From a virus: a stretch of 64,000 nt of DNA. A program made the position numbers and the translations under genes. Positions within the stretch are counted from its first letter, which is position 1, and every line of letters begins with the position of its first letter. Location of the stretch: the IMG/VR virus record IMGVR_UViG_3300023063_000001, positions 19,572-83,571 of that record. The stretch is one strand, 5' to 3'. Below are positions 10,085-50,752 of the stretch, piece by piece. Below the pieces are notes generated by a model that was not told the origin of the DNA, made no database searches, and was given only the letters and a program-made list of their open reading frames with translations.

Positions 10085-11066
10085 ATGAGTAACGCTGGTA
10101 AAGAAATGATGAGTCAATCAAAGTTTTATATGGGTTATTCCCGCTGGGATGAAATCAAGGGCGGTTATGAAACATGGGAACAATCAGTTTCCCGTGTAAT
10201 GGATATGCACCGACAAAAGTATTCTTCTGTAATGACACCACAGCTTGAAGAGTATATTGCTTTTGCAGAACAAGCTTACAAAGATAAAGTTGTACTCGGC
10301 GCCCAACGAGCATTGCAATTTGGTGGTGAACAATTATTCAAACACGAAACTCGTATGTACAACTGCTCAGTATCCCATTGTGATCGAGCCACTTTCTTTC
10401 AAGAGTGTATGTATCTTCTGCTGTGTGGTTGTGGTGTAGGCTTCTCAGTACAGTCACACCACATTGCAAAGCTACCCAAAGTTCATAAGCGATATGAAAA
10501 GAAAGTAAAAGTATTTCAGGTGCCTGATACAATTGAAGGATGGGCTGATGCTTTTGGTGTTCTGTTCAGTAGCTACTTTGTAGATGGTGGTAGCTTTCCT
10601 GAATATAAGGGTTGCCAAGTTCACTTTGATTTCAATAAGATTCGCCCTAAAGGTGCTTTGATTTCAGGGGGTTTTAAGGCACCCGGACCAGATGGCTTGC
10701 GTAGTGCATTAGTTAAGTGTGAAGCTTTGCTAGAAGCACTAGTTGAGGGTAAGACAGAGGCTGTAAGTGTACCTACCATCACAGCTTACGACTTTGTAAT
10801 GCATATGTCTGATGCTGTATTAAGCGGCGGTGTTCGTCGCTCAGCTACAATTTGTATGTTTGATAAAGATGATGATTTGATGTTGAAGGCCAAGACTGGG
10901 GATTGGTTTGTTGATAACCCTCAACGCGGTCGTAGTAACAACAGCGTTATGCTAGTTCGTGATGAACTAAGCCGTGAAGAGTGGGCTAACATCATGAAGT
11001 CTGTTAAGGACTTTGGTGAACCCGGTTTCATCTTCACAGAGAATAAAGAGTTCTGCTTCAATCCGT
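10085..11066 (+). CDS. class II (B12-dependent) ribonucleotide reductase, exon 1
   Basis: ATG after AAGGAGCAACA. This exon encodes the N-terminal 327 residues plus the first base of the next codon. It includes the MYNCS motif (redox cysteine) and CGCGVGFSVQSHH, typical of adenosylcobalamin-dependent ribonucleoside triphosphate reductases. It ends FNP followed by T. Joined to exon 2 it restores the NPC-x-E motif and gives 2220 nt, 739 residues, the same length as the Lactobacillus leichmannii enzyme as I recall it. The enzyme makes dNTPs for phage DNA synthesis. Without splicing, translation would stop at the TAA just after the junction. Confidence 0.9.
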
Positions 11067-11236
11067 AAAATTACATGCGGATTTAAAACCTTCTCTGATT
11101 GACTTGGAAGCCAAATATAAGGCGACAGGGCGCAAGGGTAATGCCAGCGTGAGAGACTAAGTGAGAGGGGCACTAAATAGTGTATGCGATAGTCCAGCGC
11201 ACAGTCAGAACTATATTTGATTACTGACAGTGTGAG
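11067..11236 (+). ncRNA. group I self-splicing intron (170 nt, no ORF)
   Basis: The exon ends in T and the intron ends in G, as group I rules require. The last seven exon bases (AATCCGT, 11060-11066) pair with GCGGATT at 11077-11083, giving a P1 helix with the conserved U-G wobble at the splice site. Candidate P7 is GACTA (11155-11159) with TAGTC (11190-11194). P8 is GCACT-AAAT-AGTGT (11170-11183). A P9-like hairpin GTCAG/CTGAC follows near the 3' end. Excision joins the frames exactly. It carries no endonuclease gene. Subgroup cannot be fixed by eye. Confidence 0.92.
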
Positions 11237-12474
11237 GTGTAGAAATTGGTATGCTTCCAATTGCAGAAAATGGAGACTCTGGTTTTCAATTCTGTAATTT
11301 GACAGAACTTAATGGTAGCAAATGTGTGGATAAAGAATCTTTCTTTAGGGCTTGTAAAGCCGGAGCTATTCTTGGGACCCTTCAGGCAGGTTACTCAAAC
11401 TTTAAATACTTGTCAGATGCAACACGTCGCATTACAGAGAAAGAGGCATTGCTTGGGGTTAGTATTACCGGTTGGATGAACAACCCCGATGTGCTATTTG
11501 ACCCACAGAATATGATTGATGGGGCCACAGTTGTAAAAGATATTAACTCTGTTGTTGCTATTTTATTGGGTATCAATCAAGCTGCACGGACAACAGCAGT
11601 AAAACCCTCTGGTAATGCTTCTGTAGTACTAGGCACAGCTTCAGGTATCCATGGAGAACATAGCCCTAAGTATCTTCGTAATGTACAGATGAACGTAGGA
11701 GATGAGGTTACACGCATTATTACAAAGACCAACCCTAAAATGGTTGAATCAAGTGTTTGGAGTAGTAATGGAACAGATGTTGTAGTTAGCTTCCCTGTTG
11801 AAAGTAAAGAGGGATCTATCTATAAATCTGATTTGATGGGCGTGAAGCAGCTTGAGTATGTAAAGACAGCACAGCAATATTGGATTGAACACGGTACAAA
11901 CTATGAGCTTTGTGTTGACCCTGATCTTCGTCATAACGTAAGTAATACCATCACAGTTGATGATTGGGATGAGGTTGAGGAGTATATCTACAACAACCGT
12001 AAATGGTTTGCTGGTATATCCCTTCTCAGCTCTATGGGGGATCGCGCATATGCTCAAGCTCCATTCACAGAAGTATTCACTGCACAACAGATTGTTGATA
12101 TGTATGGTGATAGTTCAATGTTTGCATCTGGTTTGATTGTAGGTGCATTACAAGCTTTTGGTAACAATTTGTGGATGGCTTGCGATACTGCATTGGGATA
12201 TGGACTTAAACTTGACCCTGAAGATTCATCAGACCTTTTAAAGCGTGATTGGGTACGACGTATCAAGAAGTTTGCTGAACGAAACTTTGAAGGTGATACT
12301 ATGAAGCTTACGTTTATGCTTAAAGATTGTCATAATCTTCATAAGTGGGTGGGAATCAATAATAACTTTATTAATGTGGATTTCTCACAAGATTTGTCTC
12401 AGCAAAGCTATACAGAAGTTGATACAATGGGTAGCCAAGCCTGCGCAGGGGGTGTCTGCGAGATAAGCTTTTAA
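11237..12474 (+). CDS. class II (B12-dependent) ribonucleotide reductase, exon 2
   Basis: Begins with the last two bases of a TGT codon, restoring C-VEIGM after NP. In this family the NPC cysteine is the thiyl-radical residue and the following Glu is also catalytic. Further on are QFCNLTE (second redox cysteine), GNASVVLGTASGIHGEHSP, and a C-terminal ACAGGVC motif (CxxxxC) that re-reduces the active site. The ATG at 11251 is an internal methionine, not a true start. An acquired extra stretch between the NPC motif and FCNL is longer than in the textbook enzyme. Confidence 0.9.
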
Positions 12475-36388: not shown

Positions 36389-37975
36389 TTAACGGATGTT
36401 GTTGAGAGGGTTACTGGTTCTTTCGAAACCAAAAGATTGCATGCCGGAGAGGAAGTTTGGTACAGTGCGTTTGGATGCTACAGCTTCGAAGGCATCCGAG
36501 CACGCATCACATAAATCATCGTGACCTGCCTCGCCACTACGACGGGTTCCATCAAACACCTCCACTTGATTGTAAAAAAAGGATAAATCATTGGTTACCC
36601 CGTTTTCAAAATCAGTAGCACAATTCTTTAGAATCTTCATACCACCGTTCATTACAATAGATGCAAAAGGCTTAAACCTATCAGCTTTTTTACCTTGTGC
36701 CCTTAACTGTCTGCACATAAAACCGGCTGATGAAATATCCCTAGATAAGACACTGTTTGTAAACTTAGCCCCAGGGCCTGGGTCCAAAGGGATAATTATA
36801 TCTGTCCTTTTCCCATCTTGATAAGCAGCTTCAAGGATAAAAGGTAGCCACTCTCCCGGAAGAATACGAGTCTGCTTGATGTCATGAATAAAATAAGTAC
36901 CATCTTTGAGGCGACTCATTTTCACTGAAACTGTATAGTCCGGAGAACTGTTCTTTTCACTTTTCTTGGAAAAGGCAAAATCATAAGCGCGGACTGTGCA
37001 ATCAATGTCTGTCCAAGCGGGTTCTTGACTTTCTTCAATGAACCACTCGCGGCGCACCATGCCTGAACCTTCTTCGCGGGCCTCCCACGAGCCATAAAGA
37101 AGAATTTCTTTTTGTACGCGTGGCAATCCTTCAAGGAATGCTATATAATTATCTTCAATGTATGGGTTGTCATAAACAGATGCTGAAATCCAAGCAAACG
37201 AAAGAGGTTTAATTTGCTTCTTATCCGTATCCGGCAACAAGTCGCCAAAGGAATCTCTTCGTCCATGTTTCTCAAACATCTGATCCCGAGATTCAGCCCA
37301 AATCATGTTGTTGCCGTCACGGATAAACCAGCGCACAACACCTTGTTTAGCTGGGTCAGGCCTGCCAAAGAACTCACTTCCCTCTGGATATAAGTACCAC
37401 CCAACCCACTTCTTCACCCAGCTATCAGGCGAGGGGTTCATGGTAGCCCTCATCACCGGTTTCATTTCTGCTTTTGTACGAAGGCGGGACAAAATATAAA
37501 GAAATTGACTTTCTTCAAACTGACAAAGTTCGTCTAGGACCGCTGAACTAATTTGTGCCCCTTGAAAATTGCCCGTATCATCAACACTTTCAAAGTGCGT
37601 AAAGGACACTTCAGCTTTCTTTTCTAAACCCTGCACCGGTCCAAAGTTAATCTTCATGTCCTTGATTCGAACACGAGCATTTTCATCAAAATCTTTATAT
37701 AGGCTTTTAGCTTCGTCCCAAATTGCTCCGGGTTTAGTAAGCATGGGGGTTGTTCGGCGAATCACAATACCCTTATAATTAGGTAAGTGAATATATTTCA
37801 TGTGATGAATAAGCGCGGCAAAAGTCTTCCCTCCGCCAGCTTGCCCCCCATAGAAGATTATATCAACTTCTTCACCTTCTTCTGTCGCATACTTACTACG
37901 TTTTCCTGTACCATCTCTTAGATTTAAGAAGAGGGCTTGAGGTCGGCTTGCGGGGGCAATAATTTGTCCTGACAT
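36389..37975 (-). CDS. terL: terminase large subunit
   Basis: 528 residues from ATG 37975 with GAGGAG upstream. Walker A is YGGQAGGGKTF near residue 43; Walker B is SSAVLDELCQFEE near 140; a C-motif-like TMNPSPDSW follows. The nuclease domain has VRAYDFAFS, then IIPLDPGPGAKF, and a late GEAGHDDLCDACSDAFEA, providing the acidic metal ligands. It packages DNA through the portal. An HNH gene overlaps its first 52 bases. Confidence 0.95.
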   Translation of the reverse strand: MSGQIIAPASRPQALFLNLRDGTGKRSKYATEEGEEVDIIFYGGQAGGGKTFAALIHHMKYIHLPNYKGIVIRRTTPMLTKPGAIWDEAKSLYKDFDENARVRIKDMKINFGPVQGLEKKAEVSFTHFESVDDTGNFQGAQISSAVLDELCQFEESQFLYILSRLRTKAEMKPVMRATMNPSPDSWVKKWVGWYLYPEGSEFFGRPDPAKQGVVRWFIRDGNNMIWAESRDQMFEKHGRRDSFGDLLPDTDKKQIKPLSFAWISASVYDNPYIEDNYIAFLEGLPRVQKEILLYGSWEAREEGSGMVRREWFIEESQEPAWTDIDCTVRAYDFAFSKKSEKNSSPDYTVSVKMSRLKDGTYFIHDIKQTRILPGEWLPFILEAAYQDGKRTDIIIPLDPGPGAKFTNSVLSRDISSAGFMCRQLRAQGKKADRFKPFASIVMNGGMKILKNCATDFENGVTNDLSFFYNQVEVFDGTRRSGEAGHDDLCDACSDAFEAVASKRTVPNFLSGMQSFGFERTSNPLNNIR

Positions 37976-38529
37976 TCAAACTCCTCAAGACTAAACCTTT
38001 TAAAAACAGACTCTATACAAGTTGAAGAAACATTATATTTAGCTGCAAAATCTTTTTGTAAAACACCTTCAACCCTTTTCTTGCAATTCGTAAGAATATC
38101 TATAACAGCTTCCTTGTCTAATTTAGCTAACTTACTTTCTAATTTAGAGGCTGTTACTTTAGTCAAACCCGTTGCAAGAGCATGTGATTTATTTTCAGCG
38201 TAGGTATTCCACTCAAGATTCTCTACTTGGTTGTTAGTCTTATTTCCATCAATATGGTTTATTGTAATCTTAGTTTCAGGATTAGGTATAAAAGATTTAG
38301 CAACTAGCCGATGGATCATACAAGTTTCCCTAACACCCTCTAAAGAATAAAAGTGTAGGGTTGGGTAGCCTGATGTACCAACTGAAAATTTAAGAATCTT
38401 TTCTTTATATGGGTAAACACGCCCATCTTTATAAATTATAGTTTTAGCTAAAGCTTTAACCCTACCTAAAGAACTAACTTGATATAAACCTTCATACCCT
38501 TGTATATCTTTCCAAACTTCTTCATTCAT
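37924..38529 (-). CDS. HNH homing endonuclease (NUMOD4 + HNH) beside terL
   Basis: 201 residues from ATG 38529 (the longer frame to 38580 has no better start). NUMOD4 is at the N-terminus (MNEEVWKDIQGYEGLYQVSSLGRVKAL); the HNH core is KITINHIDGNKTNNQVENLEWNT; the C-terminal HTH resembles a sequence reader. It ends inside the first codons of terL in a different frame, so it inserted at the terL start. Similar in plan to the 579 gene. Confidence 0.86.
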   Translation of the reverse strand: MNEEVWKDIQGYEGLYQVSSLGRVKALAKTIIYKDGRVYPYKEKILKFSVGTSGYPTLHFYSLEGVRETCMIHRLVAKSFIPNPETKITINHIDGNKTNNQVENLEWNTYAENKSHALATGLTKVTASKLESKLAKLDKEAVIDILTNCKKRVEGVLQKDFAAKYNVSSTCIESVFKRFSLEEFECQDKLLPPQADLKPSS

Positions 38530-38542
38530 GTAATTTAGTCTC

Positions 38543-38659
38543 TTAATAAAAAGAAAACTGTGTGCCTCCCGGCAAGACATGAGTATAGGAGCGTTTCACA
38601 ACGAGTCCTGAATAGGTGAGGGCGTCATCCCGACGAGCCTCGGTGTTGCTTTTATACAA
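38543..38659 (-). CDS. short ORF (38 aa), possible gene remnant
   Basis: TTG start five bases after the upstream stop, reading YKSNTEARRDDALTYSGLVVKRSY and ending at the HNH gene. It is more GC-rich than the HNH gene and reads like a normal coding fragment, so it may be what is left of a gene disrupted by the HNH insertion. Confidence 0.4.
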   Translation of the reverse strand: MYKSNTEARRDDALTYSGLVVKRSYTHVLPGGTQFSFY

Positions 38660-48683: not shown

Positions 48684-48706
48684 ACATATCACTCGTGTTT
48701 ATTCTT

Positions 48707-48860
48707 ATTATAAAATAGGTGGTAGCCGCCACTCTTACCTGCTGCACTACCGTGGAGACACAAAAGGCTTGTCTCCCTCACCACACTTACGCTAACCGCC
48801 AGATTAGCTTTCTTCAAAGGAACTAGGACTTACCTTGAAGACACCAAGCCGAAGCTTGAT
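48707..48860 (-). promoter_or_regulatory. structured leader / possible regulatory RNA ahead of the fibre cluster
   Basis: The minus strand carries several stable hairpins in 150 nt: CAAGC-TTCG-GCTTG (48845-48858, a UUCG tetraloop), CCTTGAAG with CTTCAA(A)GG, GGAGACA with TGTCTCC, and a GGTAG/CTACC stem. A TATAAT sequence (48712-48707) follows but has no convincing -35. It may be an upstream terminator, a 5' leader or a small RNA. Confidence 0.45.
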
Positions 48861-48915
48861 TCATTTCCTACGCTTATACATTTCTATAAGGCAGATAATT
48901 TTTAAAACTCTTAAT

Positions 48916-49083
48916 TTAAAACCAAAAAGTACGATTGCCACTAACAAGATTCAAAATCAAGCCAACAATAAATACTACTAGAAGAATTTTCAATAGCAAA
49001 CCAACAGTACCGGCGATTACGAACACACCGAACAGTGGTAGTACAAGAGCTAGAATCAATAGTACAAGAATTAGATTAACCAT
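48916..49083 (-). CDS. small hydrophobic membrane protein (55 aa)
   Basis: ATG 49083 with AAGAGGAAATAA upstream. Two nearly continuous hydrophobic helices (LILVLLILALVLPLFGVF and LLLKILLVVFIVGLIL) ending NRTFWF. Composition resembles small DUF3309-type membrane proteins. Function unknown; too short to appear in usual ORF lists. Confidence 0.66.
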   Translation of the reverse strand: MVNLILVLLILALVLPLFGVFVIAGTVGLLLKILLVVFIVGLILNLVSGNRTFWF

Positions 49084-49095
49084 TTTTATTTCCTC

Positions 49096-49515
49096 TTATT
49101 CGTTTTCTTCATACCCAACTTCACCGAGTTTAGGGGTGTAGTTAAGATTCAATCTAGTGACAGGAACAAGCTTTAGGATTTCCGCAGCGTCTTCTTCCTC
49201 TTCATCGCGTTTGCCTTCAAGACGTAGTTTAGTGAGAGTGGACTCTTCCTGAGAAGCAGCACGGTCTAAGGAAATGATACTAGTTATCACCCACTGACTT
49301 GTTGAAAGTTGTTTAGCATCAACATCCCTACCTTCAACACTATCTTTAATGTTCTCTAGAGCTTTAGGCTCAATTTCACGCAGCTTGGCCGCTGTATCAC
49401 GCAGCTTAGACTTCTGTATGCGAATTTTACTATTTGATTTAGTGTTACGGTTACTACGCTCCCCATCAAACTGTGTTGAGCGTTGTGCTGGACTAGGTGT
49501 CTTTTTGTTAGCCAT
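49096..49515 (-). CDS. hypothetical charged protein (139 aa)
   Basis: N-terminus is basic and Ser/Asn-rich (KTPSPAQRS then RSNRNTKSNSK), middle is helical, and the C-terminal third is acidic (GKRDEEEEDAAEIL). Could be a DNA-binding or packaging accessory protein (small-terminase-like), but no motif proves it. Confidence 0.6.
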   Translation of the reverse strand: MANKKTPSPAQRSTQFDGERSNRNTKSNSKIRIQKSKLRDTAAKLREIEPKALENIKDSVEGRDVDAKQLSTSQWVITSIISLDRAASQEESTLTKLRLEGKRDEEEEDAAEILKLVPVTRLNLNYTPKLGEVGYEENE

Positions 49516-49536
49516 TTTAATTACCTATAATTGTTC

Positions 49537-49750
49537 ATATTTTTAAGGAAGCTCGTAGACAATACGTCTTACAATATTCAATAGAAGGAGAATCCTTAAA
49601 AATATAACTTCCAAAAGAGGAGGGCAATCAGAAGTTATAGGAGGCAAACACGCAGGAGGGAACGTGCGCCTTTAACACAAGACTAGAGGAGAAGGGAGGA
49701 TAGTCTTGTGGATGAAGACAGAGCTTTATGGAGGATTTACTTCTTAGCGC
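49537..49750. ncRNA. multi-hairpin element with GGAGG (plus) / CCUCC (minus) loops
   Basis: About 215 nt without a substantial gene. A perfect 13-bp inverted repeat (49537-49549 and 49593-49605) is followed by ATAACTTC/GAAGTTAT (loop with GAGGAGGG), CGCA/TGCG (loop GGAGGGAACG) and a 9-bp stem 49677-49685/49701-49709 whose 15-nt loop is GAGGAGAAGGGAGGA. About a dozen GGA triplets fall on the plus strand. A TATAAT at 49526-49531 would place a plus-strand start near 49538, though its -35 is poor. The plus strand resembles CsrA/RsmA-sequestering RNAs; the minus strand would show anti-Shine-Dalgarno CCUCC loops. Confidence 0.5.
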
Positions 49751-49791
49751 TCATGCCGGTGAATCTATTGCTTTGGTCCGACGTATTCTAA
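49708..49791 (+). CDS. possible micro-ORF (27 aa), antisense to the portal fragment end
   Basis: GTG start eight bases after GGAGG, encoding a Trp/Leu-rich peptide (DEDRALWRIYFLALMPVN). It overlaps the hairpin element and the 3' end of the minus-strand portal-like gene. Could be fortuitous. Confidence 0.25.
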   Translation: MDEDRALWRIYFLALMPVNLLLWSDVF

Positions 49792-50139
49792 AGTAAACAT
49801 ACGATTTCCCATCTCATCAGTAATGGCAGGCAAAATCATTCCTTCACTCTCACCATTATTAATTTTTCTAAGCTGTTCTTTTAGAAGTTTGTAAATAGCC
49901 AGATCTTTTTCTTTTGCTGATTCTTGCATATATTGAATAGGTACATGAAGAACATATGCACCATTACAGTCTTTAAAATCAGTAACAGCTACAGCTTCTT
50001 GTTCTTCATATAACTTAAGTTTTTCATAAAGCTCAATAGCCATACTACGATACATAGGGCCATCATTATGCTGACGAGGGCCTGCGTAGTGTGCAGAAAG
50101 ATGGGCAGCAACAATAGAATGTTTTTCAAAATCAGACAT
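49765..50139 (-). CDS. stand-alone portal-protein fragment (124 aa)
   Basis: Residues about 45-124 align with residues about 246-330 of the phage's own portal. Shared features: EEQEAV/EEAEAV, VLHVPIQYM/VLSIPVQYM, a helix with D-A-Y/D-A-Y spacing and LK, EGMILPAITDEMGNRMF/EGLILPTIYDESGNKMF. It stops at YVGPKQ where the portal continues. The first 45 residues are unrelated (MSDFEKHSIVAAHL, HYAGPRQHNDGP). It has its own ribosome site (GAGGAATAAAA) and intact frame, so it looks maintained rather than a pseudogene. Confidence 0.75.
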   Translation of the reverse strand: MSDFEKHSIVAAHLSAHYAGPRQHNDGPMYRSMAIELYEKLKLYEEQEAVAVTDFKDCNGAYVLHVPIQYMQESAKEKDLAIYKLLKEQLRKINNGESEGMILPAITDEMGNRMFTLEYVGPKQ

Positions 50140-50149
50140 TTTTATTCCT

Positions 50150-50379
50150 CAAAATTAAAATAAGTAAAACAAGAAATCCGGTTTTAGACACACTCCGGCA
50201 AGTGGTTTACAGAGGAAGGCGTACGCATCTATTAGCTAACGAATTTAATCGCTACATCTCTAGAGGAGAACCTTTGCAGGTTCAGCCACTTCCTGATAGA
50301 GAGTGTATTCCTCTATCCGTCTACAGGGTGGAGGGGCCTAATACACAACCAGTCTCCAAATCGTCTTACGCTGTAAAGA
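50150..50379 (-). promoter_or_regulatory. hairpin-rich leader between tRNAs and portal fragment
   Basis: 230 nt with no convincing gene. On the minus strand GTGTATT can pair with AATACAC, while the overlapping GATAGAG/CTCTATC hairpin traps AATACAC in its loop, so the two are mutually exclusive. A third hairpin is GAACC-TGCAAA-GGTTC. This could be a switch-like leader of the portal-fragment gene or tRNA processing spacer. Confidence 0.4.
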
Positions 50380-50455
50380 TGGTGCCGTCACTAAGATTTG
50401 AACTCAGGACCTACGCATTACAAGTGCGTTGCTCTACCTACTGAGCTATAACGGC
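50380..50455 (-). tRNA. tRNA-Thr (anticodon UGU), CCA encoded
   Basis: 76 nt with a 7-bp acceptor stem (GCCGTTA/TGACGGC), discriminator A and encoded CCA. The anticodon loop is CTTGTAA within ACGCA/TGCGT. D- and T-arms (GAGTTCAAATC) are standard. Confidence 0.94.
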
Positions 50456-50460
50456 ATATT

Positions 50461-50546
50461 TGGTGGGTGTTGATGGATTCGAACCACCGATGTATCAATG
50501 TACGGATTTACAGTCCGCTGTCTTCGCCACTAGACTAAAAACACCC
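50461..50546 (-). tRNA. tRNA-Tyr (anticodon GUA), CCA encoded
   Basis: 86 nt with a long variable arm, acceptor GGGTGTT/AACACCC, anticodon loop CTGTAAA within CGGA/TCCG, T-loop GGTTCGAATCC and encoded CCA. Confidence 0.94.
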
Positions 50547-50551
50547 AAGGA

Positions 50552-50628
50552 TGGCTGGTAGTAGTGGACTCGAACCACTCATCTGTAGATTAACAGTCTA
50601 CGACCCACGCCCGGTGAGATCACTACCA
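50552..50628 (-). tRNA. tRNA-Asn (anticodon GUU), CCA encoded
   Basis: 77 nt, acceptor TGGTAGT/ACTACCA, discriminator G and CCA. Anticodon loop CTGTTAA within GTAGA/TCTAC. U at position 1 and G73 agree with bacterial tRNA-Asn. The D-arm is slightly irregular. Confidence 0.9.
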
Positions 50629-50722: not shown

Positions 50723-50752
50723 ATTATAGACACATTATTCTAATACTGTCAA
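50723..50752 (-). promoter_or_regulatory. consensus sigma70 promoter for the tRNA cluster
   Basis: On the minus strand TTGACA (50752-50747), 18-bp spacer, TATAAT (50728-50723). Both hexamers are perfect. It would transcribe the Asn, Tyr and Thr tRNAs and probably the portal-fragment gene. Confidence 0.9.

What the first reader, a model, noticed from the sequence alone, without database searches (positions are those of the whole stretch)
49537..49750. Multi-hairpin element with GGAGG loops: candidate phage-encoded CsrA/RsmA sponge (plus) or anti-Shine-Dalgarno RNA (minus)
A stretch of about 215 nt with no substantial gene folds, by eye, into several stem-loops: a perfect 13-bp inverted repeat, ATAACTTC/GAAGTTAT, CGCA/TGCG and a 9-bp stem. 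Nearly every loop contains GGA or GGAGG; about a dozen GGA triplets occur on the plus strand, well above what 40% GC would predict. CsrB/RsmZ RNAs sequester CsrA with exactly such loops. Read on the minus strand (the direction of the neighbouring genes), the same loops show CCUCC, matching the 16S anti-Shine-Dalgarno. A plus-strand TATAAT lies at 49526 with a poor -35. Either reading would be a translation-control decoy, which I have not seen described for phages of this type. Known: CsrB-type sponges exist in gamma-proteobacteria. Inference: its function here.
Basis: partly seen in the sequence, partly recalled or inferred. Interest (0 to 1): 0.82.

Follow-up and report, generated by a model that had tools for sequence, protein, structure and literature searches.

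The report
Phage RNA with SD-matching hairpin loops
Next to their tRNA genes, a group of uncultured phages (~90 kb) encodes a conserved five-domain RNA whose hairpin loops nearly all display CUCC, the sequence that ribosomes use to find start sites; it may act as a phage-made block or decoy for translation starts, but no experiment has shown this.

Summary
The element is real and part of a conserved RNA family. Relatives found through neighbouring genes carry it on the gene strand (minus in the window), within 3.5 kb upstream of the same 139-aa gene. All 23 aligned members fold into five domains. Stems covary: 14 of 18 testable pairs show two-sided changes, 0 of 500 shuffles as high. H3/H4 stem sequences are almost unrelated between members (32-34% identity), yet 67 of 69 H2-H4 loops hold CUCC.

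The strand question is settled. Wobble pairs fit the minus-strand RNA (20 helices against 2), and it folds better in 23 of 23 members. The only perfect sigma-70 promoter in the window drives that strand through the tRNA cluster. The CsrA/RsmA-sponge reading is therefore not supported. The loops read CUCUCCU, complementary to Shine-Dalgarno sequences. In silico one such loop pairs with 47-62% of bacterial start regions against 2% of control windows.

The closest known design is the alphaproteobacterial sRNA family ar14/NfeR1: three hairpins, different stems, identical anti-SD loops. Rfam's ar14 model matches the window only far below threshold, so this is a look-alike, not a member. Action by SD pairing is inference. 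Against it: loops favour CUCUCC over the rRNA's CCUCC, and phage genes use GGAG SDs too. A protein-binding decoy remains possible.

The parts
49538..49763 (-). the structured RNA as delimited by the family covariance model (5' end at 49763)
   Evidence: R1 match 107.3 bits, full length 1-229 (the window was one of 23 sequences used to build R1); five-domain fold
49717..49757 (-). domain H1, preceded by the conserved UUCACC; in the window it also holds a CCUCC (49730-49734)
49676..49710 (-). hairpin H2, 10-bp stem, loop UCCUCCCUUCUCCUC
   Evidence: covariation of H2 in the family
49642..49671 (-). hairpin H3, loop UCCCUCCU
49603..49639 (-). hairpin H4, loop UUGCCCUCCUCUU
49540..49602 (-). domain H5, long A/U-rich arm with inner hairpins
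   Evidence: 9 of 12 pairs of its outer stem with two-sided changes
50723..50752 (-). perfect sigma-70-type promoter TTGACA-18-TATAAT upstream of the tRNAs and the RNA
   Evidence: the only perfect one in 64 kb, both strands
50380..50625 (-). tRNA-Asn(GTT), tRNA-Tyr(GTA), tRNA-Thr(TGT), same strand, upstream of the RNA
49765..50139 (-). 124-aa ORF between tRNAs and RNA in this phage; no clear family (weak phrog_12381, E 0.00046)
49096..49515 (-). 139-aa gene linked to the RNA in the relatives found; homologue of phiPMW gp123 (DUF5681); possible small terminase subunit

Best explanation
A phage-encoded, trans-acting small RNA of about 226 nt, transcribed by host RNA polymerase from a sigma-70 promoter together with the phage tRNAs and carrying three to five rigid hairpins whose loops hold out CUCUCCU-type sequences. 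The loops pair with GGAG-type Shine-Dalgarno sequences and block ribosome binding on several mRNAs at once, as the loops of the rhizobial sRNA NfeR1 (ar14 family) do. Shown here: the RNA structure, its strand, loop conservation, stem covariation, genetic linkage and a perfect upstream promoter. Inferred: that it is a free RNA, that it is made early, that it acts by SD pairing, and that host mRNAs are the main target.
For: Relatives found through two neighbouring genes carry it. All 23 aligned members have five domains. Covariation 14/18 pairs, 0/500 shuffles. H3/H4 stem identity 32-34% while 67/69 H2-H4 loops hold CUCC; over 42 members 123/134 loops of 7 nt or more hold CUCC. CUCC is unpaired with probability 0.93 against 0.40 background. 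Strand by wobble and fold. Perfect promoter upstream in the window and in eight relatives. In 12 of 31 members checked the RNA begins directly after a CCA (CCA|GUUUCACC), the 3' end of an annotated tRNA in several, which suggests processing from a tRNA precursor. The element can sit up to about 3.5 kb from the 139-aa gene, before other genes, so it is not simply that gene's leader. Loop CCUCUCCU pairs at -6 kcal/mol or better with 47% of E. coli and 62% of pWW0 start regions against 2% of intragenic windows, as well as the 16S tail does; real loops beat shuffled ones in 41/42 and 39/42 cases. NfeR1 has the same design and silences mRNAs through its three redundant aSD loops (PMC10746234).
Against: The favoured loop motif is CUCUCC (C at position -2 in 72%), not the rRNA's CCUCC, and 6-11 of 56 permutations of the octamer separate start regions from coding sequence better. 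Phage genes themselves use AGGAG/GGAGA SDs; major capsid genes of relatives use GGAG, so no clear self-avoidance was found. No transcript data. No terminator after the RNA, so a free 3' end must come from processing. The host is unknown (no bacterial contig with the 139-aa gene).
Confidence: 0.5

Rival explanations
1. A multivalent protein-binding decoy: a host or phage protein recognises the CUCUCCU loops (for instance a pyrimidine-binding protein such as Rho, a KH or cold-shock protein, or the linked 139-aa protein with its basic conserved N-terminus), and the RNA titrates it or forms an RNP with it.
For: Several near-identical exposed loops on unrelated stems is also how protein sponges look. 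The motif is wider than the SD core (CUCUCC in 51 of 68 loops). The 139-aa gene is tightly linked; its N-terminal R/K/S/N-rich stretch is among its best conserved parts.
Against: Homologues of the 139-aa protein occur in phiPMW and Felix O1-like phages without a detected RNA of this kind. No known partner prefers CUCUCCU to my knowledge. The core CUCC(U) coincides with the complement of the SD core.
Confidence: 0.27
2. A cis element: a leader, processing spacer or packaging-related site upstream of the (possible small-terminase) 139-aa gene, acting on its own operon transcript or on the DNA.
For: Present within 3.5 kb upstream of the 139-aa gene in the loci found. That gene resembles DUF5681 proteins, which I know as neighbours of large terminase genes.
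Against: In L017, L025, L026, L028, L029, L031, L032, L040, L042, L046 and L052 the RNA lies about 1.2 to 3.5 kb upstream of that gene; where the intervening genes were read, it precedes other genes. Wobble pairs show selection as RNA, not DNA.
Confidence: 0.15
3. A plus-strand CsrA/RsmA sponge, as first proposed.
For: GGA-rich loops on the plus strand; CsrB-type RNAs look alike.
Against: Wrong strand by wobble pairs, folding energy and promoter. Plus-strand loops would read AGGAGAG, which differs from the CsrA consensus A(N)GGAU as I know it.
Confidence: 0.03

Closest known systems
ar14 / NfeR1 sRNA family (Rfam RF02344; alphaproteobacterial, 'cuckoo'-type anti-SD RNAs)
   Same: Several hairpins in a row, each with the same pyrimidine anti-SD motif in its loop while stems differ greatly; predicted SD pairing. 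Full-length sub-threshold model match in the window (26.1 bits, E 0.011) and in one of three relatives searched singly (L056, 18.3 bits).
   Different: Far below the gathering score of 58.8; loop motif CUCUCCU, not CCUCCUCCC; extra domains H1 and H5; encoded in phages beside tRNAs; no evidence of common descent.
Staphylococcus aureus C-rich sRNAs such as RsaA
   Same: C-rich motif thought to regulate mRNAs; RsaA pairs with an SD and a loop of its target mRNA (PMC3961350, abstract only).
   Different: No array of equal loops on unrelated stems as far as I know; chromosomal; Gram-positive.
CsrB/RsmY/RsmZ CsrA sponges
   Same: Multiple hairpins with repeated loop motifs.
   Different: GGA loops on the transcribed strand; here the transcribed strand has CUCC.
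Phage T4 stable RNAs C and D of the tRNA operon (from memory)
   Same: Stable non-tRNA RNAs made with phage tRNAs, function unknown.
   Different: No known sequence or loop similarity; not compared here.

Membership tests
ar14 / NfeR1 (RF02344) | Rfam covariance model at or above gathering score 58.8 | tested here: not met
   26.1 bits in the window, 18.3 in L056, none in L028 or L044
ar14 / NfeR1 (RF02344) | several hairpins, each with an anti-SD motif unpaired, stems differing highly | tested here: met
   definition from PMC10746234
ar14 / NfeR1 (RF02344) | identical ultraconserved CCUCCUCCC | tested here: not met
   consensus CUCUCCU; CCUCC in 11 of 68 loops
ar14 / NfeR1 (RF02344) | silences mRNAs by pairing at the ribosome-binding site | not testable with these tools
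   only predicted pairing
CsrB/RsmZ sponge | A(N)GGA motifs in loops of the transcribed RNA | tested here: not met
   sense strand fixed as minus; no GGAG in 5284 nt of the 23 aligned members
16S anti-SD mimic | loops hold the rRNA core CCUCC | tested here: inconclusive
   shared core CUCC(U); full CCUCC only in a minority of loops
small terminase (linked 139-aa protein) | significant match to a known small terminase | tested here: inconclusive
   homologous to DUF5681 protein phiPMW gp123; fold search not significant

The most novel reading that the evidence does not exclude
A lytic-phage RNA that acts as a multivalent anti-Shine-Dalgarno decoy: made by host RNA polymerase with the phage tRNAs from the start of infection, it occupies SD sequences of many host mRNAs at once and tilts translation towards the phage.
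Probability: 0.3. Interest if true: 0.88.

Novelty: new variant of a known kind. Interest (0 to 1): 0.73.

Why it matters
It is a structured RNA family with strong covariation, without an Rfam match above threshold, carried by about forty uncultured phages, with a design known so far (to me) only from bacterial chromosomal sRNAs. If it works by SD pairing, it would be a phage way of acting on translation initiation as a whole with RNA, and the layout (independent stems with exchangeable loops) makes it directly testable with reporters in laboratory strains. It also shows that phage tRNA clusters hide conserved non-tRNA RNAs.

Tried and rejected
Plus-strand CsrA sponge (rejected by the wobble and fold tests, and by the promoter). 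Leader of the 139-aa gene only (weakened: displaced copies). Phage self-avoidance of GGAG: GGAGG SDs are rarer in RNA-bearing phages (3-5%) than in M1 and phiPMW (13-15%), and GGAG SDs rarer in late than early genes of the pooled loci (21% vs 44%), but M1 without the RNA leans the same way and capsid genes use GGAG; not decisive. AGGAGAG as a special target in the phage genome: no clear excess in the pooled loci once the element itself is discounted. First H2 columns given to the count of structure pairs were off by one, corrected. DNA similarity of the element to phage records found nothing. A pattern scan for members outside the clade returned only known ones. Felix O1-like phages, phiPMW and SYP carry the gene family but no detected RNA; M1 has one lone CUCC hairpin. 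Host by bacterial contigs: none. The CUCC-hairpin cluster screen is not strongly specific as a count: some control motifs also gave clusters; the case rests on the covariation, strand and loop data instead.

Full report
What was checked. The window is part of an 83.6-kb IMG/VR phage record. Its terminase is about 40% identical to that of Pseudomonas phage vB_PsaM_M1, its PhoH 78%. The region 49537-49763 has no substantial gene and folds far better than shuffled sequence on both strands.

Relatives. The neighbouring PhoH gene brought in 12 contigs. Five of those that reach the region (L002, L007, L010, L011, L013) carry a homologue of the 139-aa gene 49096-49515 and, upstream of it on its own strand, a run of hairpins with different stems but the same kind of loop. 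No such cluster was detected in L006, L008, L009 or M1, where no 139-aa homologue was found either. An alignment of the 139-aa proteins brought in 46 loci. A covariance model (R1) finds the RNA on the gene strand in 39 of these 46 at E below 0.01. The 23 sequences used to build the model (22 of these loci and the window) match by construction; the others (for example L025, L026, L029, L031, L035, L042, L045, L052) are independent finds. Distant forms in L027, L057, L059, L060 and L061 show by hairpin scan and by eye. L037 starts at the gene itself; L058 is unclear.

Structure. All 23 aligned members fold into exactly five domains with short linkers. On the plain sequence alignment, 14 of 18 pairs of H2 and H5 show two-sided changes with pairing kept, which none of 500 shuffles reaches, and sliding the partner destroys the signal. 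The H3 and H4 arms next to the loop have 32-34% pairwise identity, H2 51%, while 67 of 69 H2-H4 loops hold CUCC. Over 42 members, 123 of 134 loops of 7 nt or more hold CUCC, with U before it in 82% and after it in 93%. CUCC sites are unpaired with probability 0.93.

Strand. Inside Watson-Crick helices, G-U on the gene strand occurs in 20 distinct helices and A-C (wobble for the other strand) in 2. The gene strand has the lower z-score in 23 of 23 members (mean -7.5 against -3.5). The only perfect sigma-70 promoter of the window points the same way, at 50752-50723, upstream of the three tRNAs; eight relatives have perfect ones 230-2900 nt upstream of the RNA. In 12 of 31 members checked the RNA starts right after CCA, in several the end of an annotated tRNA. 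So the RNA is most likely cut from a tRNA-RNA precursor; that step is inference. The CsrA-sponge reading fails.

Function. The loop consensus CUCUCCU contains the complement of AGGAG. The commonest loop, CCUCUCCU, pairs at -6 kcal/mol or better with 47% of 47 E. coli and 62% of 53 pWW0 start regions against 2% of windows inside genes, as the 16S tail does (43-47%). Real loops discriminate better than shuffled loops in 41/42 and 39/42 cases. This shows capacity, not use; other pyrimidine orders do as well or better. The rhizobial sRNA NfeR1 has three hairpins with anti-SD loops on unlike stems and silences mRNAs through them (PMC10746234). Rfam's ar14 model, to which it belongs, matches the window over its full length only at 26 of the required 58.8 bits, L056 at 18.3 and two other relatives not at all. 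I read this as the same design reached independently.

Limits. Members come wholly from uncultured phages, the host is unknown, and no transcript data were available. The linked gene belongs with DUF5681 proteins and may be the small terminase subunit, but its structure prediction is weak (mean pLDDT 69) and the fold search found nothing significant in the PDB. Whether the RNA acts on host or phage mRNAs, or on a protein, is open. A review of phage sRNAs searched by keyword named no such RNA in the passages read (PMC12197685).

Noticed in passing
window 48690-48920 (-): A second non-coding stretch downstream of the 139-aa and 55-aa genes shares 70-90% identical pieces with ten relatives, most of them just downstream of the 139-aa gene; it folds only mildly better than chance (z -2.1).
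   Followed up: partly
window 50207-50376 (-): Non-coding stretch between tRNA-Thr and the 124-aa ORF, 75% identical over 175 nt to L061 5589-5759, where it lies between a tRNA and the same RNA element.
   Followed up: partly
L010 3187-3292 and L011, L018, L045, L047, L050, L053, L054: A ~104-nt module 90-95% identical between otherwise divergent phages, in the same tRNA region: another candidate phage RNA.
   Followed up: no
window 10085-11068 and 11251-12474 (+): Two adjacent ORFs match the first and second halves of one ribonucleotide reductase family (phrog_367 positions 42-387 and 397-666): a split or interrupted gene.
   Followed up: no
L057 11308-11550; L060 11199-11429: Group I intron match in L057 (81 bits) and a sub-threshold one in L060, downstream of the 139-aa gene.
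   Followed up: no
window 37924-38580 (-): NUMOD4/HNH homing endonuclease directly upstream of the large terminase gene.
   Followed up: no
L017, L046, L055: A diverged branch of the RNA family with extra 5' hairpins and a longer H5; H4-type hairpins recur in a few unrelated stem types across the family, as if exchanged as modules.
   Followed up: partly
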